DNA of 50,510 nucleotides from Spirogloea muscicola. Its lineage: Eukaryota; Streptophyta; Zygnematophyceae; Spirogloeales; Spirogloeaceae. The notes below the pieces were generated by a model. That model was not told where the DNA came from. It did not search any database and saw nothing but the letters and a program-made list of their open reading frames with translations. Position numbers and translations under genes: made by a program. The stretch is from positions 63,646-114,155 of the forward strand of contig WELB01000324.1 in NCBI GenBank assembly GCA_009602725.1, in the 5' to 3' direction. Below, in pieces: positions 678 through 47,850 of this stretch; within the stretch, counting starts at the first letter, position 1; every line of letters begins with the position of its first letter.

Positions 678-750
678 GCCGGCCTAGCTCAGTCGGTAGA
701 GCGCAAGGCTCTTAACCTTGTGGTCGGGGGTTCGAGCCCCCCGGCCGGCG
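678..750 (+). tRNA. tRNA-Lys (anticodon CTT)
   Basis: A complete cloverleaf can be folded by hand. The acceptor stem GCCGGCC (678-684) pairs with GGCCGGC (743-749), with discriminator G at 750. The D arm is GCTC/GAGC around AGTCGGTA. The anticodon stem CAAGG/CCTTG encloses the loop CTCTTAA, with anticodon CTT at 711-713. The T arm is GGGGG/CCCCC around TTCGAGC. There is no intron. Internal A-box and B-box promoter sequences are intact, so this looks like a functional lysine tRNA gene. Confidence 0.97.
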
Positions 751-2211: not shown

Positions 2212-3207
2212 ATGGCCGGCGACGACGACGACGACGAGCGAATCCGCCAAGCCGTCAGGGCGCTTCTAGCGACCGGCGACCTGGACGAGCTCAGCGACCT
2301 CAAGATCTGCACATTAGTGGAGGCAAGCATGGGCCTCGAACTCACGGAGACGTAGAGGAGGATGGTGCGCACGCTGGCGTACGACCGCGTGTTCAATGGC
2401 TGGGGCGTGCGCGACCGAACCAGCAGGAGCAGAGGATGAACACGAGGACCATGGCGCAAATGCAGAGGATGAACACGAGGACCATGGCGCAAATGGCATA
2501 GCACCTGGCCGCAAGCGTAAGCCACCTGCTGCAACCAAGAGTGCCAGCATGACTGAGCGGAAACCGTTCCCAAAGCGTGAAGGTGGTGGCAAAACTTTCT
2601 GCGAGGTGACTTATCGGCAAACTATCTCCTTACCACCACGCGTCAACACAGAGCAAGCAAGCCTGCCCATCCATGGATGAGTGGACTCGTCATGCAGCTG
2701 GACTCTGACGGGAAGCCTATCAACACTCCTACATTACTCTGTGAGATCTCAATGAATTCGCTTCTAGGACGCAGTATTAAGCATGAGACGACCTCCAGGC
2801 TTGGAGACTGCAGTGTGCAGCGCTCCAATGGTGATAAAGTTGACTACGCTCCTCTGTAGTGTACCATGATGTCCATGTTGTCGTGTGCTTATTTCTGTGC
2901 CAGGTATCACCTATAAGGTTTGTTACACGGAGTGAGTGGAAGGGTCAGCAACTCGTGTCAGTACGAGAGTACTATGAGAAAATTGGTGTAAAACGAGTTG
3001 TAAACAATGTTAGCACTATCTCTCTACTCAACACAGCGCCTACCTTCTTTTGGGACTCATGGCATGTCCATAATTACACCCTACAGAGCGACTTCTCGAG
3101 TCCTTCCTGCCACAGTCCTCTTCCTTTCCCTCCTCCGAGCCCCCCAAACATCCCCATGTGCTCCGTTGTATGCAAATGTAAAGTTGATTACTGCTGTTAC
3201 ATCGTAG
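2212..3207 (+). CDS. KELP: KELP-like transcriptional coactivator (DEK_C + PC4), possibly damaged
   Basis: KELP proteins are plant coactivators with an N-terminal DEK_C-type helical domain and a C-terminal single-strand-binding PC4 domain. Exon 1 starts at ATG 2212 with an acidic lead (AGDDDDDERI) and a clear DEK_C domain. An acidic, Lys-rich linker with a 33-bp tandem duplication (EDEHEDHGAN twice, about 2430-2496) runs to 2605. The PC4 core follows at 2904-2987 (TRSEWKGQQLVSVREYYEKI) and 3037 onward (LPSFGTHGMSI). Introns 2606-2903 and 2988-3036 have GT-AG ends and keep frame; the second is only 49 bp. Two faults are visible. A TAG at 2353-2355 sits inside DEK_C, where homologues carry a polar residue, and the frame changes between DEK_C and the linker. 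The extreme C-terminus is weakly conserved. It could be an expressed gene with assembly errors or a decaying gene. Confidence 0.68.
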
Positions 3208-3419
3208 TCCGACTATATTGCAGAAGGATGTCGTAGCCTGAGACTCTATGTCCAAAGAAGTGAAACACCTCTTCCAATGTGAGAGGCCAGCCCCAAACGA
3301 CCATTCGAGGTCTGAAAGTATTAGAAGGTGACAGAAGACGTGACTAATATCTGTGATTCCTGCGAATGCATGCTCAACAAAATCTAGTTGGCGGGTGCAG
3401 ATCGGACTAAGTAAGGGCC
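3208..3419. other. Downstream flank of KELP-like gene
   Basis: Nothing recognised between the end of the KELP-like gene and the next retroelement cluster. Confidence 0.5.
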
Positions 3420-3960
3420 GGGAAGAAGAAATTGTGCTTGCTCATCCAACCTAAAAGTAGACCTTTCCAGTGAAGGGCCATTGCTGTGATTGGCCAACCC
3501 TTAAAAGGATCTAAAATATACATATCGAATATAGAAAATTCGAAGGGGCAATTGAAGTGCTAAACACACAGCGACTCAAGTGGCCACTGTGTGCCCAGTA
3601 CTCCACAATGAGCAGGCGCAGGTCAGAGAAATAGTCTCCGGTAGCAGGTCCCCTGTTTATAGCTTGAGGCTGCAGCCAGGGCGCGACCAGCACGCAGATG
3701 CAACGAATGTGCTATTGACCGTTCAGCGATACTGAGATACTGAGGCGATACTGGGGTGCGTGCGATGCAACTGGGCCTACCGCGTTCAATACGGCCTGCT
3801 CCCGTTGGTGTCATCGGGACACGGCTCTTCGCGCTAGGCAGTGAAGGAGCCACCAAAGAGAAAGACTCTTGGAGGGCGATTGCTGTGATTGGCCAGCCTA
3901 AGAGAAAGTGCCCGCCCACTAAGAAGAGGGGCTGGCAAAGCTAACCCAAAAAGAATGGAC
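3420..3960 (-). mobile_element. Degraded LINE C-terminal fragment with hairpin remnants
   Basis: On the minus strand a frame near 3,740-3,600 reads AHSLHLRAGRALAAASSY, and an overlapping frame ends SDLRLLIVEY, so the shared C-terminus is present but broken by frameshifts. Hairpin-type sequences of the GCTGTGATTGGCCAACCC class flank it at about 3,484-3,502 and 3,886-3,900, with another stem near 3,926-3,946. At least two insertions appear to be fused here. Confidence 0.65.
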
Positions 3961-4470: not shown

Positions 4471-5093
4471 TGGCGAACCCTGCCGCCGTTCGATGGCCTT
4501 CCGGGCAAGCCGCTGGAGGAGATCCAACCAGCCACTGCCGAAGGCCCCGTGTACGTCAATGGCCAGTGCCGCGAAGGCATCGCCTGGAGAGGGAAGGGTT
4601 GGACCAAATGTTCACTCCTTTTCCTCTGGGCTGGCCAATCCCAGCCAAAGCTCTCCACCGGAAAGTCTTTCTCCCCGAAAAAAATGGACACGGCCGGAAA
4701 GTAAGAAGAAATAAATGCCAACAAACAAAGGCCGCTCAAAGTGAGTGGAGCGCGCCCTATTCCTGCACGATGCTGTCGCTGTTCACCATCAGCAAAAGCC
4801 GGTTTGCTCGTATCTCCTGCCACGCTGGCGTCCATGTCGTCTCCTGCCGGGGCTAAGCGCGTTCACACTACTAGCGACGCGAAGGCGCTCCACCGCGCCG
4901 GGGGGCCCCGCGGTCGTCGGGCGGCCGACGGACCGACCAGGCCTCGGGCCGCCCGACGATCGCCGGAAGTTCGGTGGGAGGAGCTGGGGCCGCAATTCCC
5001 CACCGACTTGATCACGCCCCCTCCGACCCACTCCGACTGGGGGAGACCGTCGTTGGTGAAACAACAAAATCAACAAATCCCCACCCGATCTGA
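4471..5093. other. Hairpin remnant and GME upstream region
   Basis: A degenerate tail A hairpin is visible at about 4,625-4,645 (CTGGGCTGGCCAATCCCAGCC) within retroelement-like sequence up to about 4,710. From 4,860 the sequence becomes GC-rich and leads into the GME 5' untranslated region. I do not see a TATA element I would defend. Confidence 0.5.
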
Positions 5094-5094
5094 C

Positions 5095-5126
<32 letters not shown>

Positions 5127-5134
5127 CCGCCGCC
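5094..5134 (+). repeat. CCG trinucleotide run in GME 5' UTR
   Basis: A run of CCG/CCA units ends directly at the GME start codon. Similar GC-rich triplet runs mark the first exons of most genes in this window. Confidence 0.85.
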
Positions 5135-7580
5135 ATGGCCGCCGCTGCCGACCCGAACGCCTTCACGGCCACGGATCTGGAGCGGGAGCCGTACTGGTCC
5201 GACGGCAAGCTGCGCATCTCGGTGACGGGCGCGGGCGGCTTCATCGCGTCACACATTGCTCGCCGCCTCAAGACCGAGGGCCACTACGTCATCGCGTCGG
5301 ACTGGAAGAAGAACGAGCACATGACGGAGGACATGTTCTGCGACGAATTCCACCTCGTCGATCTGCGCGTCATGGACAACTGTCTTAAGGTCACCGACGG
5401 TGTGGAGCACGTCTTCAACCTGGCCGCCGACATGGGCGGCATGGGCTTCATCCAGTCCAACCACTCCGTCATCATGTACAACAACACCATGATCAGCTTC
5501 AACATGCTCGAGGCCGCCCGCCTCAACGGCGTCAAGAGGTTTGGCACGTCAAATCCCTGCACTCCTGCTTCTCCTGCCCATGTGCAGCCACTCTCTCCCG
5601 CACTTGATCTGCCGATCCTTGTCGTGTACGTGTAGCACCGCCGCAGTGCAGAACTCCAGCTGATTAGTGGATCTGCTATTTGTCCAGATTCTTCTACGCC
5701 TCCAGTGCCTGCATCTACCCCGAATTCAAGCAGCTGGAGACGGACATTGTCGCCCTTAAGGAGTCCGACGCGTGGCCAGCTGAGGTGATCAGCTCTTGAT
5801 CACGTGTAGAAGTTGGATCCCTGCTGACCAGATTCATTGACAGCAGGTGTTGATCAATAGGAACGGGAGTGTGTGGCCAGCTACTTGTCTCTAGAAGCTG
5901 TAATTGGTGGTAGAATTCGAAGCTGCTGTTTGTTGGAGACTCTGGCAGTTTGCTAAGTGGCAAGGGCCGCCACCATTGCTTGCTTTACTGCAATCAGCTG
6001 TCAATTGCCACGCAGAATGTGCGGCTCGCTTCGAGCTTCTTTCAAGCTGGATATTGCTGCTCACCAGAATGAGCAACATCTGGTCTTGTTGGTGTTAGAC
6101 GCTAGAGACGCAGAAGGCCTGGTGATTAACATCTTCTCTATCTTGGTACACTCCAGCCCCAAGATGCGTATGGGTTGGAGAAGCTGGCAACTGAGGAGCT
6201 CTGCAAGCACTACACCAAGGACTTTGGCGTCGAGTGCCGGATTGGACGTTTCCACAACATCTACGGCCCCTTCGGCACATGGAAGGGTATCATCAGCACT
6301 GCTCTCTTGATAGCGATGTGCAATTCCACTTTCTTGCGCACTGAGGGCAACTGAAAGGCATTGGAGAGGTGTTCCCCACAGCGTGACGTCTTTGTAGGTC
6401 AGAGTTAATAGAGGTTGTTTCAAAGCCATGGGAGTGTCATAGCTCAACCTACTGGAATTGTGCTGATCACGCCAAGAGTCTCATCAAATGGCTGCTGACT
6501 AATGCAGGTGGGCGCGAGAAGGCTCCCGCTGCCTTCTGCCGCAAGGCCTTGACTTCCCCGGAGCACTTTGAGATGTGGGGCGATGGCATGCAGACGCGGT
6601 CGTTCACCTTCATTGATGAGTGTGTGGAAGGTGTCCTCAGGTACTCACCTCAAGGCGATTGCCAGCGTGATCCTTCAGTAATGACCTGAGACCAGCCTGC
6701 TTTTACTCTTGTGTATGCATATTTCACTGCTGCCGGTGCGACATGCATGGCGAACTGCTGACTTTGGCTCTGGTTGTCCAATGCTCACGATTGATAGTGG
6801 GGTTCAATGTTGGTCCAGGTTGACCAAGTCCGATTTCAGGGAGCCCGTGAATATTGGATCTGATGAGATGGTGAGCATGAACCAGATGGCGGAGATTGTC
6901 CTGAGCTTTGAGTCCAAGGATCTTCCCATCAAGCATATCCCTGGCCCAGAGGGTGTCCGCGGCCGCAACTCTGACAACACACTTATCAAGGAGAAGCTCG
7001 GCTGGGCCCCTTCAATGAGGCTGCGCGTACGCCCCACCCCTCTACTGCCCTCGTGTGCCCTCTAGAGCAGTCTTGGTGTTCATGCTAAGGATTCTGGTGG
7101 TTGGGGGAAGTGGCACTTTTGTCTATCCGAGTCTAGGGGCAACCTTGAGCTAGTAGTCCCCACACAGTATCTAGTGTACCATGCAGAAGGTAAGTCTGTG
7201 TGTCACATGGTCTCATGGCTATGACAGGCAGTCATCCATTGTTTCTGATTCTCGTTGACAGATGTATTTTGTTACTCAGGAACAAGTGCGCTGACAGAGT
7301 GCAGCAAGTCCTAGTCAGTATGGCAGTTGGGACTTCAATGCTGAGGCCCCCACCAGTGCCTAAGTTGACAAATAGTGACGTCGACGTCTCTCTGTCCCCC
7401 TATATCTTCCTTTTACAGGATGGCCTCCAGATCACTTACTTCTGGATCAAGGGGCAGCTGGAGAAGGAGGCGGCCGCGGGTCTGGACACAGCCACCCTTG
7501 CGACCTCCAAGATTGTTGGCACCTCGGCCCCTGTGTCCCTTGGCTCACTCCGGGCAGCCGATGGCAAGGAGAATTTCTGA
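5135..7580 (+). CDS. GME: GDP-mannose 3,5-epimerase
   Basis: Converts GDP-D-mannose to GDP-L-galactose (and L-gulose), supplying ascorbate synthesis and L-galactose for wall polymers; a cytosolic short-chain dehydrogenase-type enzyme. Six exons join in frame: 5135-5538, 5688-5784, 6157-6286, 6508-6640, 6819-7026, 7419-7580, giving 377 residues, the size usual for plant GME. The Rossmann NAD motif GAGGFIASH lies near residue 35. The substrate-site segment FFYASSACIYPEF opens exon 2, and the catalytic YGLEK (Tyr-x3-Lys) opens exon 3. Further family blocks are GRFHNIYGPFGTWKGGREKA, SFTFIDECVEGVLR and GPEGVRGRNSDN. All introns are GT-AG and phases match. The start follows the CCG-rich leader. No lesion is visible. 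It is convergent with the RNFT-like gene. Confidence 0.97.
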
Positions 7581-25484: not shown

Positions 25485-26605
25485 AAGGTCCGAAGGAGCC
25501 AAAAGCGCTGACTCAGAGCTTGAGTAAGATGGATTAATCAGCAAACACGAGTGAGTACTTGCAAAACCGAAAGACTAGCAGCCGGAAAGCAATCCCCCTG
25601 ACGAAAGCCAGAGGCTGCAGCTAGAGCACAGCCGGCAGCAGGTGCGAGGCGTGGGCCATGGACCGCTGGAGGGAGATGGACAGGCACATACGGTAAACCT
25701 GAGCTAGCGAGCCAGCGGCGTTGAGGTCAGCTTGCTCACATCGCCTGCGGTACACAGCACAAGCCGGGCCAACAGGTCGAATCACGGGGACCCAAGAGCC
25801 CCGTGCACATCCACGGCCAGGGGTACGAACTCGTCCCCTGCCGGGTGGTCTGCGTGCTTAGCCGCCTTGCTGCGAGCAGCGTTCGCCGCAGCATGGCCAG
25901 CCCTCGAGACAGAAAGCCCCGGATTAAGGCCGTCCATCACATCAGTGGTGACAACAGCGGCGATGACGCGCGGGCCGCTGTGCGGTGTGCTGGCTAACAG
26001 GTCGGCCCCCCGAGTATGGTGTCTGTCATGCAGGATAGGCATGTTGGACGTGTTTCTAGCGCCACGTTATAACCAGCACCCAGGAACATGGTATCCCTGA
26101 GGAGGTCATGGGCAGCAGGCCGCTTGCCTCCGTTTGCGCAGCGGAGGACATGCGCCGCCAGCTCCGTTGGTTCGCCGCTCGCTTTCTGCACTTGCACTGC
26201 AGCACTCCTAGAAGACAGGGCGGGGAAAGTCCCAGTGAGGCGATAGACGGCCGTGCGGAAGATCTCGTCTGGCATCCACAGTGCGCCGTGAGCGGACGAG
26301 CGGAGAGCCAGGCCGCCGCGCTAGGGGAGGGTGCCGACGGCAGCCAGGCATGCCCGCGCAAGTCTGAGGGGGGGAGTAAGTGCAGCGTGGCCGTAAGGCC
26401 GCCTTGTCGAGCTCGGCCATTTGACGCGCCTGCGCCCGCAAGTCGAGGGAGTGGGCCAGGTGCGCAAAGGGGACCGCGCTCCCTGCTAGGGCCGGGTGCT
26501 CGGCGAGTAGCGCGCGGGGAGCCGAGCGAAGCGCCACTCAGAATGGCAGCGCACCGGTCTCCACTTCCGCCACCGCCTGCTGCAACACAGGCCGCCATTT
26601 GGGAA
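25485..26605 (-). pseudogene. Frameshifted LINE RLE-domain copy
   Basis: The minus strand preserves the RLE region in pieces. A CKC pair lies in one frame. AAHVLRCANGGKRPAAHDLL and RDTMF follow in another. RGADLLASTPHSGPRVIAAV follows in a third, then FVPLAVDVHGALGSP and YRMCLSISLQRSMAHASHL. Compared with the intact copy at 26.7-27.5 kb, the first acidic residue of the Asp-x14-Asp motif is kept as AD, but the second is Ala (about 25,950-25,960). Frameshifts and the lost active-site residue mark it as dead. Confidence 0.75.
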
Positions 26606-26610
26606 TGTGG

Positions 26611-27633
26611 CTGCTGATATCGAAGAATCGGCTGTAAACTGCCAGCCAGATGCATACAGGAGGAGGAAGCCTTGTGACACCGACGCGGCGACCTGTGCCC
26701 AGCTGCATAGGTACGCTGGTCCTGCAGGCGTGGGCGAGCGAGTCCGAGGCCGACATGGCCGAGGGGTAAAGTTGCCTTTCATCCAGGCGCTTCTCTCCCT
26801 CTTCGCCAGTGCGAGTGTGGCCACATTGCCGACGACAAGCTCGCCTTAGCTTCGCACATGCTGAGGTGTGTTGAGGGGGGTGAGCGCATTGCCTCCCACG
26901 ACCTACTAAGGGATACCATGTTTGGCATTGTGCGAGAGGCGGGATATCATCCGGCGATGGAGGTGTCTGGGATGCCAATCTCCTCAAGGCGCGGCAAGCC
27001 ATACGTGCGGCGTCTGGACGTGGTCGCTACCCCGCGGGGCGGTGGGCCTCGTCTGCTCTTGGACGTGGTACTGATCGACGCATACAAGGCTGGCGCACCA
27101 ACGTCAACCGTGTCTGGCTGGGCCACGTCCAGCGCGGAGCGCAAGAAGGAGCGGCACTACCATGATCATCCTCGAGGGGACCATCTTTACCCGTGTGCCA
27201 TGGATATCTATGGAGGCTACGGCGTGAAATGGTCCTCCCTGATCCAGCATCTGGCCCGGCTGGTTGATGCGCGTCGTCGAAGTCGGGGGGGCAGCTTGGG
27301 CCACTCCAGCATTCCGCAGGCCTTAGTTGCATATTATAGAATGCGGCTCTCGCTTAGTTTGCAGCGCTCGCAAGCATTGGCTCTTCATCAACGTGCAGGG
27401 CGCGCTCTAAGTCAGGCCTCCGGCTATCGTGGCGGCGCTCCAGCTCCCCAAGTTAGCTTGTCAGATTTGTTTGTGCTCACCCGTGGGTACTAATGTCATC
27501 TTAGGTACCTTAGATTAGGTCTCCGTATTATGTAGCATTGTTTAGTCTGCACTCGACTCTGCCTGAACAATGTATCGGCTTGAATTGGCCTCCCTTTCAA
27601 TTCATGCGCCCCGCACGCCTTCTCTCTCTTCCC
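26611..27633 (+). mobile_element. 5'-truncated RLE-type LINE with tail C
   Basis: Best-preserved element of the window. It holds a hairpin module at 26,611-26,660, an open reading frame for the endonuclease-like C-terminus (26,711-27,493) and a 3' tail running to 27,633 (TAGATTAGGTCTCCGTATT, then CAATTCATGCGCCCCGCACG and CCTTCTCTCTCTT). The second long copy at 39,841-40,391 diverges from it exactly after the CTTCTCTCTCTT sequence, which defines the 3' end. No reverse transcriptase domain lies upstream, as expected for a 5'-truncated insertion. Confidence 0.82.
26711..27493 (+). CDS. LINE ORF C-terminus: CCHC knuckle + restriction-like endonuclease domain
   Basis: Open for 260 codons after a stop at 26708; the true start lies in the missing 5' part. 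A zinc knuckle C34-x-C36-x12-H49-x3-C53 (LRQCECGH, then HMLRC) is followed by RIASHDLLRDTMF. The pattern RRLD103-x14-D118 (LLLDVVLID) is the K/RPD-x12-14-D/E signature of the restriction-like endonucleases in R2/R4/CRE-type LINEs. A Lys-rich helix (SSAERKKERHY), the strand CAMDIYGGYG and the basic helix YYRMRLSLSLQRSQALALHQ follow. The protein ends SDLFVLTRGY with a TAA stop. The usual role is nicking target DNA for target-primed reverse transcription. The catalytic Asp pair is intact. With no reverse transcriptase in the window, class assignment rests on this domain alone. Confidence 0.75.
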   Translation, partial: VRWSCRRGRASPRPTWPRGKVAFHPGASLPLRQCECGHIADDKLALASHMLRCVEGGERIASHDLLRDTMFGIVREAGYHPAMEVSGMPISSRRGKPYVRRLDVVATPRGGGPRLLLDVVLIDAYKAGAPTSTVSGWATSSAERKKERHYHDHPRGDHLYPCAMDIYGGYGVKWSSLIQHLARLVDARRRSRGGSLGHSSIPQALVAYYRMRLSLSLQRSQALALHQRAGRALSQASGYRGGAPAPQVSLSDLFVLTRGY

Positions 27634-28865: not shown

Positions 28866-29700
28866 GCTTTTGCTCTTCTTCTTCCCGCTACCCGCTACCA
28901 GGAGACCAGTTTCTCCGACCTGCGGCTGCTTAGCAGGGGTTACTGGGTGTTTTGTAGCTACTTGACTTCTCTGTGTGCTTCAGAGCTTTCCCTGGCCCCT
29001 TCGAACTTTGTTCATACCTTTCTCTGGGCTGGCCTGTCCCAGCCACCGCCTTCTCCTGGAAGCGTCTTTCCTCTTCCGAAGGGGGCGAGGGCTGCGAAGA
29101 GCCAGCCCTTGTAGATATGGAAAGCAGAGCGCGCAGCCGGGCTTCCGTGCCGTCGAGTCGCTCGCTCGGGTGCACGGGAGGTGAGCCTTGCCATCACCCT
29201 GCAGCATTCCTTGGCTTCTGCCATGCATTTGCGGGCAGGCCGCATTGTGGCTGCTGCTCCACGCCATCGTCCGCCGCTTCCATGGGGAGCCGGGGGACTT
29301 TCCTGCAGCCGGGTCGCTAGCGCAGGTGTACCGTATGCGCTTGGCCGTTTCGCTGCAGAGGTCTATGGCCCGCGCGCTGCACCTGCAAGCCGGGAGAGCC
29401 CTCGCTGCTGCCTATGGCTCTGGCCAGGGGAACCGCTTCCAGGAGCCCAGCTTTTCTGACATTGGGCTGCTTAGCAGGGGTTACTGAGTGCTTCGTAGCT
29501 GCTTTGGCCCCCTTCTCGTACTTTGCTCGTTCTTTTTTGGGCTGGCTTTTCCAGCCCCTATCCTCAATGGGGGAGTCACTTCTTCTTTTTTGTTTCTTCT
29601 TGTGCTTGTTTCCCTTAGCGCTTCCCCTGGCCCCCTTCTCGTACTCTGTTCATTCTTTTTTAGGCTGGCTTTTCCAGCCCCTATCTTCAATGGGGCTTCA
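28866..29700 (+). mobile_element. Three successive LINE 3' fragments (LSRGY type, tail A)
   Basis: The first ends SDLRLLSRGY near 28,944 with the stop changed to TGG, then tail A with a stem-loop near 29,025. The second, from about 29,180, holds LAITLQHSLASAMHLRAG and is fused to GSLAQVYRMRLAVSLQRSMA, ending SDIGLLSRGY with a stop at 29,485-29,487. Two tail A copies follow, with stem-loops at about 29,534 and 29,663. Sequence order shows repeated insertion in one orientation. Confidence 0.75.
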
Positions 29701-33400: not shown

Positions 33401-34339
33401 AACACATACAATGAGTGGAATTACAGGTGTGCATACTTTGGTGGGACAACCGGAGCCGTAGTTGCAATGCGCAAGCAGGAACTTGTAGCTCCTCTGTTAC
33501 AGAATCAGGTGGCAGATGGAGTATGATGACTTGCTGCATTGTAAGCTGGACTTTGTTGCAATTGTGTGGTTGTGTCTAATCCTTCAAGGACACTTGATTG
33601 TCTCTTGGACTGCAGCAAACTTCGCCTTTGGGAGCTGACCGAGTATAAAAAGGTCGTATTCATTGATGCCGACATTCTTGTCCTACAAAGCCTGGACTTT
33701 CTTTTCGCCTTCCCCGAGCTTTCAGCTCGAGGCAATCACGGTGACATTTTCAACTCAGGGATATTTGTGTTGGAGCCTGCCAAGTGTACATTTGAGTACT
33801 TAATGCGAAGTGTGGAGCATGTCAGGTCCTACAATGGGGGCGACCAGGGCTACTTGAACGAGCTCTTCACATTCTGGCACAGAGTGCCCAGGCGTGTAAA
33901 TTACTTGAAGGCTAAGTTGGAAAATCTAGACGACAATGTGGACCTCAACAGCAAGCTCTTTGCTGAGGACCCTCCCTCTATTTATACGATCCACTACTTA
34001 GGGTTGAAACCATGGATGTGTTTTCGCGACTACGACTGCAACTGGAACGTGCCAAACCTGCGTGTATTTGCCAATGAAGCCGCACACGCGCGCTGGTGGA
34101 GGGCGCACGACGCGATGGCAGGGGAACTGCAGCAGTTCTGCTTTATGTCCTCCATGACAAAAGCAGCTCGTTTCATTGACACTGAGGATGCAAGCACGCG
34201 CAAGTTCAAGGACCGGCACTGGGCGTTGGCCATCAAGGATCCAAGGCTTGAGTTGTGCTTGCCCGGGCAGCAGTACTGCAACTGGCGGTCCTATCTGGAA
34301 AATTGGGTGCGGAGCCCACCGCCGTCGTCGGCCTTCTAG
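30470..34339 (+). CDS. GUX: GUX/PGSIP-like GT8 glycosyltransferase
   Basis: GUX enzymes are Golgi type II membrane GT8 transferases that add glucuronic acid to xylan; PGSIP relatives were first linked to glycogenin. Seven exons: 30470-30613, 30947-31029, about 31299-32010, 32339-32470, 32621-32933, 33162-33426, 33616-34339; all phases agree, giving about 790 residues. Exon 1 has the signal anchor ALVFVVWLVVVVTVLQ. Exon 4 carries WSDLYPEWIDEE and exon 5 INVVVASVPCD and LPVGSCALAHPL. The catalytic domain reads YLCGAIMLAQSIRQSGS, YNEWNYSKLRLWELTEY and FIDADILVL (the metal-binding DxD), then GDIFNSGIFVLEP, YNGGDQGYLNE and HYLGLKPWMCFRDYDC. The exon 3 acceptor is uncertain, and exon 3 encodes a long low-complexity stem not typical in length. 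The N at 30479 makes the first few residues unsure. Ends with TAG. Confidence 0.93.
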
Positions 34340-39840: not shown

Positions 39841-40391
39841 TCACATACAAGGCTGGCGCACCAACGTCAACCGTGTCTGGCTGGGCCACGTCCAGCGCGG
39901 AGCGCAAGAAGGAGCGGCACTACCATGATCATCCTCGAGGGGACCATCTTTACCCTGTGCCATGGATATCTATGGAGGCTACGGCGTGAAATGGTCCTCC
40001 CTGATCCAGCATCTGGCCCGGCTGGTTGATGCGCGTCGTCGAAGTCGGGGGGGCAGCTTGGGTCACTCCAGCATTCCGCAGGCCTTAGTTGCATATTATA
40101 GAAAGCGGCTCTCGCTTAGTTTGCAGCGCTCGCAAGCATTGGCTCTTCATCAACGTGCAGGGCGCGCTCTAAGTCAGGCCTCCGGCTTCCGTGGCGGCGC
40201 TCCAGCTCCCCAAGTTAGCTTGTCAGATTTGTTTGTGCTCACCCGTGGGTACTAATGTCATCTTAGGTACCTTAGATTAGGTCTCCGTATTATGTAGTAT
40301 TGTTTAGTCTGCACTCGACTCTGCCTGAACAATGTATTGGCTTGAATTGGCCTCCCTTTCAATTCATGCGCCCCGCGCGCCTTCTCTCTCT
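39841..40391 (+). mobile_element. Second RLE-LINE copy, near-identical to 27 kb copy
   Basis: From about 39,849 to 40,391 the sequence matches 27,090-27,633 with only scattered differences, including the SSAERKKERHY block, the LSLQRSQALALHQRAGRALS helix, SDLFVLTRGY with its stop and tail C. One base is missing near 39,956 (ACCCTGTG versus ACCCGTGTG), which breaks the frame. The copy is 5'-truncated inside the endonuclease domain. Such similarity points to recent activity or recent gene conversion. Confidence 0.85.
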
Positions 40392-42125: not shown

Positions 42126-42757
42126 TTTCTGATTGACTGGTAGCGCCTTCTCGCCAGACTGTGATCAAGTATTTCTTCAAACATCCGCCTCCTTTGCTTG
42201 CATTCGGAATGGCTCTCTAGTTGCTTTTAGTGTGCTAAAATATTGGTCTCCAAGTGGCGTGACTATGGAGAGACTTCCTCGCTCAGATTGATCTGGCACA
42301 TTCAGCAGGCAAAGTGAGCAAACATACTGTCGTGTAGCTGGACCAGCATGGCTCTGACATCGTTGCTTTGAAATCACAATTCACGAAGCCTCACTCCTCA
42401 GTGTTGCTGATAAGATCAGGCCCTACAATCTCCACTGCAGTCTGCCTGTACCAGCTGACTTGGTTAGCTTTGACAAGGCAGGGCACCTGCCGCGGACCGC
42501 AACGCAGATGAGTGTCTAAGGCAGGTGATGGATGACGAGGTAATGCGTGACAGATATATGGAAAATTGCGTCTTCAATGTCGGGTACCTGCACCATTGTG
42601 GGCGGCTCCAAGTTCGAAAATTCAAATCGAGCTGGTGCCACCGTCTGCCGTCGCAAAGCCGCCGGCAGCGGCGGCGGCGGCGGCGGCGGCAACGGCGGCG
42701 GCGGCGGTGGCAGCAGAGCCGGAAGCCTGTGGCCGCGCTTGCGCCGTGTCTGCCGGG
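42126..42757. other. Region upstream of XRCC3
   Basis: No gene recognised. From 42,660 a GGC-triplet run leads into the XRCC3 first exon. An upstream coding exon for XRCC3 cannot be excluded. Confidence 0.5.
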
Positions 42758-43805
42758 ATGAGCGCCGGCTCTGGCGGCGGTAGCGGCGGTAGCGGCGGCG
42801 GCGGNAGCTGCCCGCTGCTCGACGCCGCGCTGCACGGCGGCCTGGCCTGCGGCGCAGTCACGGAGTTGGCCGGCGAGAGCGGCGCCGCCAAAACACAGCT
42901 CTGCCTGCAGGCCGCGCTGGCGGCGGCGGCGGCGGCGCCACCTGCTGCCGCTGGCGCCGCGCTATATATACACACCGAGGGCCCCTTCCCCTTCAAGCGC
43001 TTGCGAGAGCTGGCCATCCGTCGTCGGGGCTTGCTTGCCGCAGGCAACGGCCATGGCGACCCCTGTGCTCGCGTCTACGTCCGCAGCCTGCAGACCGCCG
43101 AGGAGCTCCTGCACCTGCTGCTCGCGCTCGCCGAGGACTCAAGCGGCTCTCAGGAGCTCTCCGTCAGGCTACTGGTCGTGGACTCCATCGCGGCGCTCTT
43201 CCGCACAGACTACGACAACACGACCGGTCAGCCGGACGCTGGCAACCCACCTTTGTGGATCTCCATCAAAGCGCTGCATTACATGGCCGTGTCGACGAAG
43301 TCAGGCTCACAGCTGTGGTTGTCTGCGCCTTACACCACGTCGTGTCTGCCTCCGTCTGTGCATGCAGCGGAGTTGCGGCAGCGTACAGCCATGCTCTTCC
43401 GCATCGCCAGCGCCCTCAAGCGGTACGCCTGGCAGCACAACATGGCCGTCCTTGTGACTAACCACGTGGCGGATGTCATGGAGCCCACCAATGGGAGGCT
43501 CAGCGCAGAGCCTTCGACCACCGTGTGTGGAGGCCTCTGGACCTTGGGTCGCCAGGTGGTACCTGCCTTAGGCTTAGCATGGTCCAATTGTGTCAACACG
43601 AGACCTTTCAAGGGGGCAGATTGTATTAGACTGCTCTGCCTCTGACCCCTCAGCAGAGCATGCAGTACTGCCAGAAGGCTCACGAGCTGCTCGGCAAATG
43701 CAGGTGGTGTTTAGTCCCTATCTGCCACAGTCTTCGTGCCATTTCGCCCTGACACGCAATGGGATTAGTGGAGCAAAGCCTTGTGTGACCAGTAGTCCAG
43801 CTTGA
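42758..43805 (+). CDS. XRCC3: XRCC3-like RAD51 paralogue
   Basis: RAD51 paralogue that with RAD51C supports homologous recombination and meiotic repair in the nucleus. The ATP-binding core reads CPLLDAALHGG, ELAGESGAAKTQLCLQAAL (Walker A), ALYIHTEGPFPFKRLREL and VRLLVVDSIAALFR (Walker B). After an intron at 43227-43367 (141 bp, so the frame stays open through it) come ELRQRTAMLFRIASALKRYA, NMAVLVTNHVADVM and VPALGLAWSNCVNTR. The C-terminus MQVVFSPYLPQSSCHFALTR lies in another frame, ending at 43805. A GT-AG intron of only 31 bp (43623-43653) would join them in phase; a frameshift is the alternative. Walker A is GESGAAKT, with Ala where Gly normally precedes the Lys. The N at 42805 sits in the Gly-rich N-terminus, so the start is provisional. 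Confidence 0.88.
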
Positions 43806-46935: not shown

Positions 46936-47445
46936 GTAGCTGCTTTGTTTTCATAGCCCTTGCCCCCACATTGGGCTGGCCACGCAGTGGGAGGTGCTGA
47001 GTAGAGTATAGCTCCGACACTACTCTGACTACCCCCGCAGCGATCAGCTCCTGCCAGCGGCAATCGACATCTTTGGCTGTCTGGGTCCTCGTTTCCACAC
47101 TCTTCTTCAAAACATTGCCAATCTAGGCTACACTCGACGTGCAGATGTGTTTCCGGCTGAGATGGGCTTGCCAGCTGCATATCTGTCGCTCTTGCGACGA
47201 CGAGTTTCCGCCTATTTGCAGCGTGCTCAGGCTAGTGCCTTGCACCAGAAAGCTGGGCGAGCTCTAGTTGGTGGCAGAAGGGCTCCGTTTCTGGTATCTA
47301 GTATTCATTCATCGATTAGTGACCACTTTGTTTTGACCCGTGGTTATTGAGCGGGTCAATCTGCTGTAGGTTATGTAGATCTTAGATGTGCTTGCCTTTG
47401 TACTTGGCCATTTGGCCTACATTTGTTTCTAATACACGGAATTCC
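46936..47445 (+). mobile_element. Well-kept LINE C-terminal copy (LTRGY) with tail B
   Basis: From about 47,040 an open frame reads LLPAAIDIFGCLGPRFHTLL, QNIANLGYTRRADVFPAEMG, LPAAYLSLLRRRVSAYLQRA, QASALHQKAGRALVGGRRAP and ends SDHFVLTRGY with a stop at 47,348-47,350. Tail B follows (CCTTTGTACTTGGCCATTTG, ending TAATACACGG). This is the best example of the tail B subfamily here. The AIDIFG segment aligns with AMDIYGG in the 27 kb endonuclease domain. Confidence 0.82.
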
Positions 47446-47850
47446 TCCCACAGCGATCACCTTCTACCGGCGGCAATCAACACTTTTGGCTGCAATGGCC
47501 CTCGCTTCCACACCTTACTGCAGAATATTGCAAGCTTGGGGTACGCCCGACGTGAGGATATATGCTTCCAGCTCAGATGAGCATGCCGGCAGCCTATTTG
47601 TCATTCTTGCATTGTCGAGTGTCAGCTTGTCTGCAGCGAGCTCAGACTCATGCGTTGCATCAGAAAGCTGGTCGAGCCTTAGCTGGTAGCTCAAGAGCTT
47701 GTCGTCCGGTATTCGGGCATCAAATAGCGACCTCTATGTGCTGACTCGTGGGATTTGAGCGGGTCAGCTTAGCAGCAGGTGACGTACATTTATCAATGTG
47801 CTTGCCTTTGTACTTGGCCACACATGGCCCTCCATTTCTTAATACACACG
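47446..47850 (+). mobile_element. Second LINE C-terminal copy, tail B, frameshifted
   Basis: Directly follows the previous tail. It reads LLPAAINTFGCNGPRFHTLL and QNIASLGYARRED, then a frameshift, then PAQMSMPAAYLSFLHCRVSA and QKAGRALAGSSRA. The LTRGY end is out of frame near 47,750. Tail B ends near 47,845. Confidence 0.75.

What the first reader, a model, noticed from the sequence alone, without database searches (positions are those of the whole stretch)
26711..27493. A retroelement family with an RLE-like domain and a fixed LTRGY/LSRGY C-terminus
More than fifteen fragments across the window end in SDL-x-x-L(T/S)RGY followed by a stop, preceded by a basic helix of the form R-x-RLSxSLQRSxAxALHxRAGRAL. 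The longest copy adds a CCHC knuckle and an Asp-x14-Asp motif matching the K/RPD-x12-14-D/E signature of R2-type LINE endonucleases (established family knowledge). The invariant C-terminal pentapeptide is unusual, and I do not know it from described RLE LINEs. No copy reaches a reverse transcriptase, consistent with 5' truncation. This is the strongest candidate here for an undescribed system.
Basis: partly seen in the sequence, partly recalled or inferred. Interest (0 to 1): 0.75.

Follow-up and report, generated by a model that had tools for sequence, protein, structure and literature searches.

The report
R2-like jumping gene in green alga
The fragment is the tail end of a self-copying genetic element related to the R2 family, present in this green genome in many copies, some apparently intact; the general kind is known, but this branch has an unusual conserved protein tail and tends to land in short runs of C and T.

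Summary
The window carries 18 SDxxxL(T/S)RGY motifs (14 followed by a stop; none in resampled sequence), and the 260-codon frame holds a knuckle and an endonuclease-like domain. The copy starts at 26804; the first 31 codons are flank. Elsewhere in the genome the same frame continues upstream into full-length copies (frames of 1,271-1,517 codons) in seven families that I named: Pro-rich N-terminus, one or two zinc fingers, reverse transcriptase (RT), knuckle, endonuclease, tail. The endonuclease model matches R2 retrotransposon proteins (Z 11.7-14.0) well above everything else (8.1). So it is a LINE of the R2 group with only a restriction-like endonuclease (RLE). Insertions are dispersed, often 5'-truncated, flanked by short direct repeats and biased to pyrimidine tracts; 3' ends are CT-rich. 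The tail appears to be kept at the protein level; its helix has a counterpart in R2, but the last ~20 residues run past the R2 C-terminus. Whether it belongs to CRE, R2, R4, NeSL, HERO or a new clade could not be tested. Known kind, possibly a new lineage.

The parts
26804..27626 (+). Family A copy, 5'-truncated: knuckle, endonuclease, C-terminal tail, stop, 3' UTR and CT-rich 3' end
   Evidence: 97% DNA identity to a full-length family A copy; the 3' end ...CGCCTTCTCTC is shared in the family
26711..26803 (+). Open flank in the same frame, not part of the element
   Evidence: homology to family A starts at 26804
26810..26869 (+). Zinc knuckle C-x-C-x12-H-x3-C
   Evidence: alignment A2: the three Cys in 13 of 13 rows, the His in 12 of 13
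26879..27283 (+). [quoted passage not shown] invariant H32, R36, R69, D72, D87, K115 (numbered from 26804)
   Evidence: model with pLDDT 87-93 in most core blocks and 64-75 in loop blocks; R2 endonuclease fold; invariance in 13 of 13 rows
27311..27418 (+). Basic helix of the C-terminal tail (contains RMRLSLSLQRSQALALHQRAGRAL)
   Evidence: predicted helix 170-205; within the range aligned to the C-terminal part of R2 chains
27455..27493 (+). C-terminal extension SLSDLFVLTRGY plus stop
   Evidence: same residues spelt with different codons in other families; low model confidence
39844..40389 (+). Second family A copy, more truncated, its endonuclease part split over two frames
   Evidence: 96% identity; split tblastn match
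46967..47847 (+). Two family H copies in a row
   Evidence: 92% and 72% identity to family H
25595..26584 (-). Old copy related to family F, the longest fragment in the window, still short of the RT
   Evidence: 65% identity, reference positions 2942-3960 of 4144
29259..29587 (+). Family F related tail (SDIGLLSRGY) and 3' UTR
   Evidence: 81% identity
38854..39078 (-). Family F related tail (SDLRLLSRGY) and 3' UTR
   Evidence: 74% identity
39472..39716 (-). Family H related tail (SDLYVLTRGY)
   Evidence: 74% identity
27834..28000 (-). Family G tail (SDLHLLSRGY)
   Evidence: 99% identity
3924..4220 (-). Family E related tail (SDLLLLTRGY)
   Evidence: 74% identity
24212..24372 (-). Family F tail and 3' UTR
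   Evidence: 98% identity

Best explanation
It is the 3' end of a LINE (non-LTR retrotransposon) of the R2 group that encodes one protein: N-terminal zinc finger(s), reverse transcriptase, zinc knuckle and a restriction-like endonuclease, with a lineage-specific C-terminal tail. Mechanism: the protein binds its own RNA near the 3' end, the endonuclease nicks the purine-rich strand of a short pyrimidine tract, the CU-rich 3' end of the RNA pairs with the freed GA-rich DNA end, and the RT copies the RNA from there (target-primed reverse transcription). A staggered second cut leaves a short direct repeat, and early stops leave the many C-terminal fragments. Shown: domain order, RT and endonuclease homology, open full-length frames, dispersed insertion, 5' truncation, short repeats, pyrimidine bias, conserved tail peptide with changing codons. 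Inferred: the enzymatic steps, which strand is nicked first, tail pairing, and the parts played by the 3' hairpin and the LTRGY tail.
For: Open full-length frames with RVT_1 in 4 of 4 copies scanned. The profile of 8 copies finds three R2 protein sequences best in the PDB (2.3e-14 to 4.7e-14), then 8c8j 2.8e-6 and LINE-1 ORF2 5.9e-6 to 1.3e-5. Foldseek of the 1,036-residue model: 5 hits at E <= 0.001, all R2. Endonuclease plus tail: 7 hits at E <= 0.001, all R2; Z 11.7-14.0 for seven R2 chains, next 8.1 for a spliceosome chain that I take to be Prp8. Direct repeats at 24 copies: mean longest shared word 7.6 against 5.5 when flanks are re-paired, 0 of 2000 shuffles as high. Pyrimidine share of the last 10 bases before the 5' junction 0.72 in 23 copies, against 0.52 further upstream in 22. 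One empty site seen in uninterrupted copies of another family. Four-fold sites agree in only 0.31-0.44 of comparisons while the tail helix keeps 0.74 amino-acid identity.
Against: The full-length model is poor (mean pLDDT 55.9, TM to R2 0.13-0.16), so the fold evidence rests on the endonuclease part. That part has no sequence match in the PDB. It lacks the P of R/K-P-D, and the knuckle spacing (CX1CX12HX3C) differs from the published CX2-3CX7-8HX4C. Shared words between flanks can be partly microhomology with the CT-rich tail; only 13 of 24 copies share 7 bases or more (up to 10 in shuffles, mean 3.8). No activity was measured.
Confidence: 0.93

Rival explanations
1. A Dualen/RandI-type LINE, with both an AP-like endonuclease and an RLE, plus RNase H, as reported from Chlamydomonas.
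For: The host is a green plant or alga (rbcS split by introns on four contigs; GDP-mannose 3,5-epimerase), and Dualen LINEs are reported in green algae (PMC8226300, passages).
Against: Only RVT_1 passes its Pfam cut-off in 4 of 4 full-length copies from 4 of 7 families; no AP-type endonuclease or RNase H model appears. The region before the RT is Pro-rich with zinc fingers.
Confidence: 0.03
2. A member of one of the named RLE clades, most plausibly HERO (dispersed insertions) or NeSL/Utopia (one to three N-terminal zinc fingers, RT, zinc finger, RLE).
For: The domain order fits the description of Utopia (PMC4640811, passages) and of the R2 group (PMC3636483, passages); HERO contains many non-specific elements (PMC4640811, passages).
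Against: No single fixed target: of 1,128 pairs among 48 3' flanks, 8 share a word of 14 bases or more, and those words read as the 3' UTR of other copies of this element. Utopia is reported there from Amoebozoa, SAR and Opisthokonta. No clade reference sequences are on hand, so the tree was not tested.
Confidence: 0.45
3. The LTRGY ends are kept because the DNA/RNA there is a cis signal for reverse transcription, not because the peptide matters.
For: Truncated copies keep their 3' end, and a GC hairpin recurs in the 3' UTR.
Against: Across 13 copies the same residues are spelt with different codons (R as CGN or AGR, S as TCT or AGC); four-fold sites in the last 16 alignment columns agree in 134 of 399 comparisons, 0.34, within the 0.31-0.44 seen elsewhere (no formal dN/dS was run).
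Confidence: 0.05

Closest known systems
R2 retrotransposon protein (Bombyx mori, Taeniopygia guttata, Platysternon megacephalum)
   Same: Order zinc finger(s)-RT-knuckle-RLE in one frame; endonuclease fold Z 11.7-14.0, aligned range reaching the last residues of the R2 chains; RT profile E about 1e-14.
   Different: Dispersed, not fixed to one 28S rDNA site; R-x-x-D in place of R/K-P-D; knuckle spacing differs; about 20 further residues after the R2 C-terminus.
HERO clade LINEs
   Same: RLE-encoding, with many non-site-specific members (PMC4640811, passages).
   Different: No reference sequence on hand; relationship untested.
NeSL clade / Utopia
   Same: One to three N-terminal zinc fingers, RT, zinc finger, RLE (PMC4640811, passages).
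   Different: Utopia mostly sits in U2 snRNA genes; here insertions are dispersed. No green plant host is in the part of its host table seen.
Dualen/RandI
   Same: LINE with an RLE, known from green algae.
   Different: Dualen also has an AP-like endonuclease and RNase H; neither was found in 4 of 4 copies scanned.
Prp8
   Same: Distant RT plus RLE-fold relative; next after R2 (9dtr_A, Z 8.1; that this chain is Prp8 is my reading).
   Different: Cellular splicing factor, not mobile.

Membership tests
RLE-encoding LINE (R2 group) | Single ORF with a non-LTR type reverse transcriptase | tested here: met
   PF00078 in 4 of 4 copies scanned; R2 RTs best PDB match; frames of 1,271-1,517 codons between stops in the 11 frames
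RLE-encoding LINE (R2 group) | PD-(D/E)XK endonuclease downstream of the RT | tested here: met
   [quoted passage not shown] R2 endonuclease Z 11.7-14.0
RLE-encoding LINE (R2 group) | (K/R)PD-x12-14-(D/E) spelling | tested here: inconclusive
   R-x-x-D-x14-D in the window copy; R69, D72 and D87 invariant in 13 of 13, but V, A or L stands where P is expected
RLE-encoding LINE (R2 group) | CCHC knuckle between RT and RLE | tested here: met
   C-x-C-x12-H-x3-C, the three Cys in 13 of 13 and the His in 12 of 13; spacing differs from the published CX2-3CX7-8HX4C (PMC5678591, passages)
RLE-encoding LINE (R2 group) | N-terminal zinc finger(s) | tested here: met
   one or two C-x2-C...H...C motifs before the RT in 11 of 11 frames checked; Pfam's zinc-finger models do not pass their cut-off
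R2 clade proper | Insertion at the fixed 28S rDNA site | tested here: not met
   48 3' flanks (28 of family A, 20 of family H) share no common site; the rDNA itself was not examined (one search failed)
NeSL/Utopia | RT phylogeny within the NeSL clade | not testable with these tools
   no NeSL reference sequences on hand
HERO | RT phylogeny within the HERO clade | not testable with these tools
   no HERO reference sequences on hand
Dualen/RandI | AP-like endonuclease upstream of the RT, and RNase H | tested here: not met
   only RVT_1 passes the Pfam cut-off in 4 of 4 full-length copies, from families A, C, F and H

The most novel reading that the evidence does not exclude
A new clade of RLE-only LINEs that has radiated into several families in a green alga. 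It is marked by a conserved C-terminal extension ending (T/S)RGY that sits beyond the R2-like last helix and may contact the 3' UTR hairpin or a host factor. It has given up fixed-site targeting for priming of its CU-rich RNA end on pyrimidine tracts across the genome, with the T-run before the hairpin of sister copies as one favoured landing site.
Probability: 0.4. Interest if true: 0.6.

Novelty: new member of a known kind. Interest (0 to 1): 0.42.

Why it matters
R2-type proteins are being developed as site-specific insertion tools (recalled, no call), and how the group moves between fixed-site and dispersed insertion is open. A genome with several recently copied families that share one protein layout but insert at pyrimidine tracts offers natural variants of target choice, RNA recognition and the C-terminal tail. 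It would also place RLE-only LINEs in a green plant or alga, a group not among the three supergroups named for Utopia in PMC4640811 (passages).

Tried and rejected
Relatives in other collections: no relative by tblastn in viral contigs (90 pattern matches) or genome contigs (70 pattern matches); both are poor places for an algal LINE, so this says little. Sequence search of the endonuclease alone in the PDB: nothing. Pfam on the window frame: nothing.

Host name: rbcL was not found, rbcS was; paper searches by assembly size gave one unrelated paper and none.

Fixed target: rejected. RNA-level constraint on the LTRGY codons: disfavoured. An RT tree of the RLE clades was not built, because only R2 references are available.

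Papers: search listings; passages of PMC4640811, PMC5678591, PMC3636483, PMC7650587 and PMC8226300; no paper was read whole. LTRGY or LSRGY with 'retrotransposon' gave 14 papers, 8 listed; in those I take LTRGY to be an abbreviation of LTR-Gypsy, from titles alone. I do not claim that the lineage is absent from print.

Rows dropped. Direct-repeat test: 16 of 20 fetched family H copies (4 had the 5' end outside the stretch) and 8 family A copies; left out were L003 (5' end outside), L009 (N), L011 (no match), L016, the second window copy, and all 20 family F copies (13-18% from the reference). Pyrimidine test: 23 of those 24 5' flanks, 48 3' flanks. Second model: the window and 12 of the 14 references (L019 and L091 left out); of the 17 stretches, 10 were not used because the frame was broken, short or N.

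Names: families A, C, D, E, F, G and H are mine. C and D are 95% identical in DNA, so six would be as fair a count.

Full report
What was reported and what is there. The 260-codon open frame at 26711-27493 is real. The part that belongs to the element begins at 26804, directly before the knuckle; the first 31 codons are flank. SDxxxL[TS]RGY occurs 18 times in the six frames of the window, 14 times followed by a stop; the strict spelling with a stop occurs 11 times and bare L[TS]RGY with a stop 16 times; 100 Markov resamples of the window gave none of these. Seven single-copy family references cover 8,776 of 50,510 bases of the window, 17.4%, in 44 segments at E <= 1e-6. No reverse transcriptase of six families is found in the window.

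Full-length copies. The window lies in a 153-Mb genome of 471 contigs. A search with the 230-residue fragment had 19,443 first-look candidates, of which only 150 were scored; many of the listed copies are about 99% identical. The longest open frames in such tables come from runs of N, so stretches without N were used. In those, one frame runs from a Pro/Ala-rich N-terminus through one or two zinc fingers (11 of 11 frames), a reverse transcriptase with Y-, F- or C-ADD, the knuckle, the endonuclease and the tail. These 11 frames are 1,271-1,517 codons from stop to stop, which can include upstream flank. One of the fetched copies, L018, is frameshifted just before the tail. Pairs of near-identical copies set the length of families C, E and H at about 4.0-4.3 kb. 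A query from finger to RT returned 88 matches of 1,603 first-look candidates; in 54 of these 88 rows the frame is open for 1,100-1,600 codons without a stop, N runs not checked (recounted). I call the families A, C, D, E, F, G and H; C and D are 95% identical in DNA. Seven copies from the other families are 47-58% identical to A from finger to end.

What the protein is. Pfam finds RVT_1 in 4 of 4 copies, from families A, C, F and H (E 8.5e-15 to 1.9e-17), and no AP-type endonuclease or RNase H. A profile of eight copies finds three R2 protein sequences first in the PDB (2.3e-14, 4.0e-14, 4.7e-14), then an RNA-directed DNA polymerase (8c8j, 2.8e-6), LINE-1 ORF2 (5.9e-6 to 1.3e-5), and retron-type or group II intron RTs (0.014-0.045). 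A model of 1,036 residues was poor overall (mean pLDDT 55.9), yet its only Foldseek matches at E <= 0.001 were five R2 chains (TM 0.13-0.16, so weak by itself). A model of the window copy's 229 residues with 13 aligned copies was better (mean 75.4; [quoted passage not shown] Its seven Foldseek matches at E <= 0.001 are all R2. Re-alignment of 996 of Foldseek's top 1,000 chains gives Z 14.0, 13.9, 13.2, 12.2, 12.1, 12.0 and 11.7 for R2, then 8.1 for chain A of a spliceosome (9dtr, which I take to be Prp8) and 7.9 or less for viral cap-snatching nucleases. Published work already links the R2 and Prp8 endonucleases (PMC5678591, passages).

The tail. The three best R2 alignments run to model residue 206-209 and to residue 1121 of 1121 (9nl2), 1169 of 1169 (9nl3) and 1389 of 1390 (9dou), so the basic helix 170-205 has a counterpart in R2. 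The last 20 or so residues, with SDLFVLTRGY, run past the R2 C-terminus and are not modelled with confidence. The tail ends in [TS]RGY in 11 of 13 aligned copies; the others end TCGY and TRNH. Amino-acid identity is 0.74 in alignment columns 183-207 (within the helix) and 0.61 in the last 16, against 0.36-0.62 in the other seven blocks, while four-fold sites agree in only 0.31-0.44 of comparisons throughout. I read this as selection on the peptide; no formal dN/dS was run.

How it inserts. The 3' ends are CT-rich...CGCCTTCTCTC with extra CT or T in family A...GAGCCCTTCTCTCT in relatives of F...ACACGATCTCT in H. Among 48 3' flanks (28 family A, 20 family H; the CT run removed), 8 of 1,128 pairs share a word of 14 bases or more, and these words read as the 3' UTR of other copies of this element. 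Insertion is thus dispersed. Short direct repeats are present: at 24 copies the longest word shared by the 5' and 3' flanks averages 7.6 bases against 5.5 after re-pairing (0 of 2000 shuffles as high); 13 of 24 share 7 or more (shuffles: mean 3.8, at most 10), the longest 22. Some of this can be microhomology with the tail. Bases before the 5' junction are pyrimidine-rich (0.72 in the last ten, 0.65 in the ten before; 23 copies; 0.52 further upstream in 22). For the family A copy on contig C105 the empty site is seen in uninterrupted family E copies, giving a repeat of four to seven bases. A GGCTGG-loop-CAGCC hairpin recurs in the 3' UTRs of families C to G (by eye), and the window holds 40 strand-matches at 27 places, against 0.89 strand-matches expected.

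Model and limits. The simplest account is target-primed reverse transcription as in R2, with a relaxed target: a pyrimidine tract whose purine strand, once nicked, pairs with the CU-rich RNA end. The nick, the pairing, the hairpin's role and the tail's role are inferred. The lineage cannot be placed among CRE, R2, R4, NeSL and HERO, the five clades named in PMC4640811 (passages), without reference sequences. Dualen is disfavoured by domain content. The host is a green plant or alga by rbcS, split by introns on four contigs, and GDP-mannose 3,5-epimerase; that a nuclear rbcS marks the green lineage is established knowledge, not a call. rbcL was not found in the assembly, as expected if the plastid genome is left out.

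Verdict. It is a new member, possibly a new clade, of a known kind.

Noticed in passing
window, 27 places, e.g. 4363, 24241, 28027, 29540, 48453: Hairpin GGCTGG-loop-CAGCC, 40 strand-matches against 0.89 expected. Stem constant, loop variable. Some (12717, 28571, 28688, 28772, 29090, 41434) have no RGY motif just upstream and may be 3'-end-only copies or SINE-like riders.
   Followed up: partly
window 678-750: tRNA-Lys (CTT) gene.
   Followed up: no
window 5060-5632, 33545-34336, 42551-43642: Host exons: GDP-mannose 3,5-epimerase, glycosyltransferase family 8 and a Rad51-like ATPase.
   Followed up: no
L002 (strand opposite to the locus), 3' flank of the family A copy: Family A copy flanked by a 22-base repeat just upstream of an ATG whose frame reads like a 2-Cys peroxiredoxin (by eye, no search).
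   Followed up: no
L023 716-1031, L024 748-1063: Two family F full-length copies share about 300 bases upstream of their frame, including a family F 3' end: 5' transduction or a tandem source copy.
   Followed up: no
L026 frame, RT motif: Family G copy has CADD where the other frames have YADD or FADD.
   Followed up: no
L003, L008, L034, L036 3' flanks: Four family A copies landed in the T-rich run just before the GGGCTGG hairpin of another copy's 3' UTR: a possible nested hot spot.
   Followed up: partly
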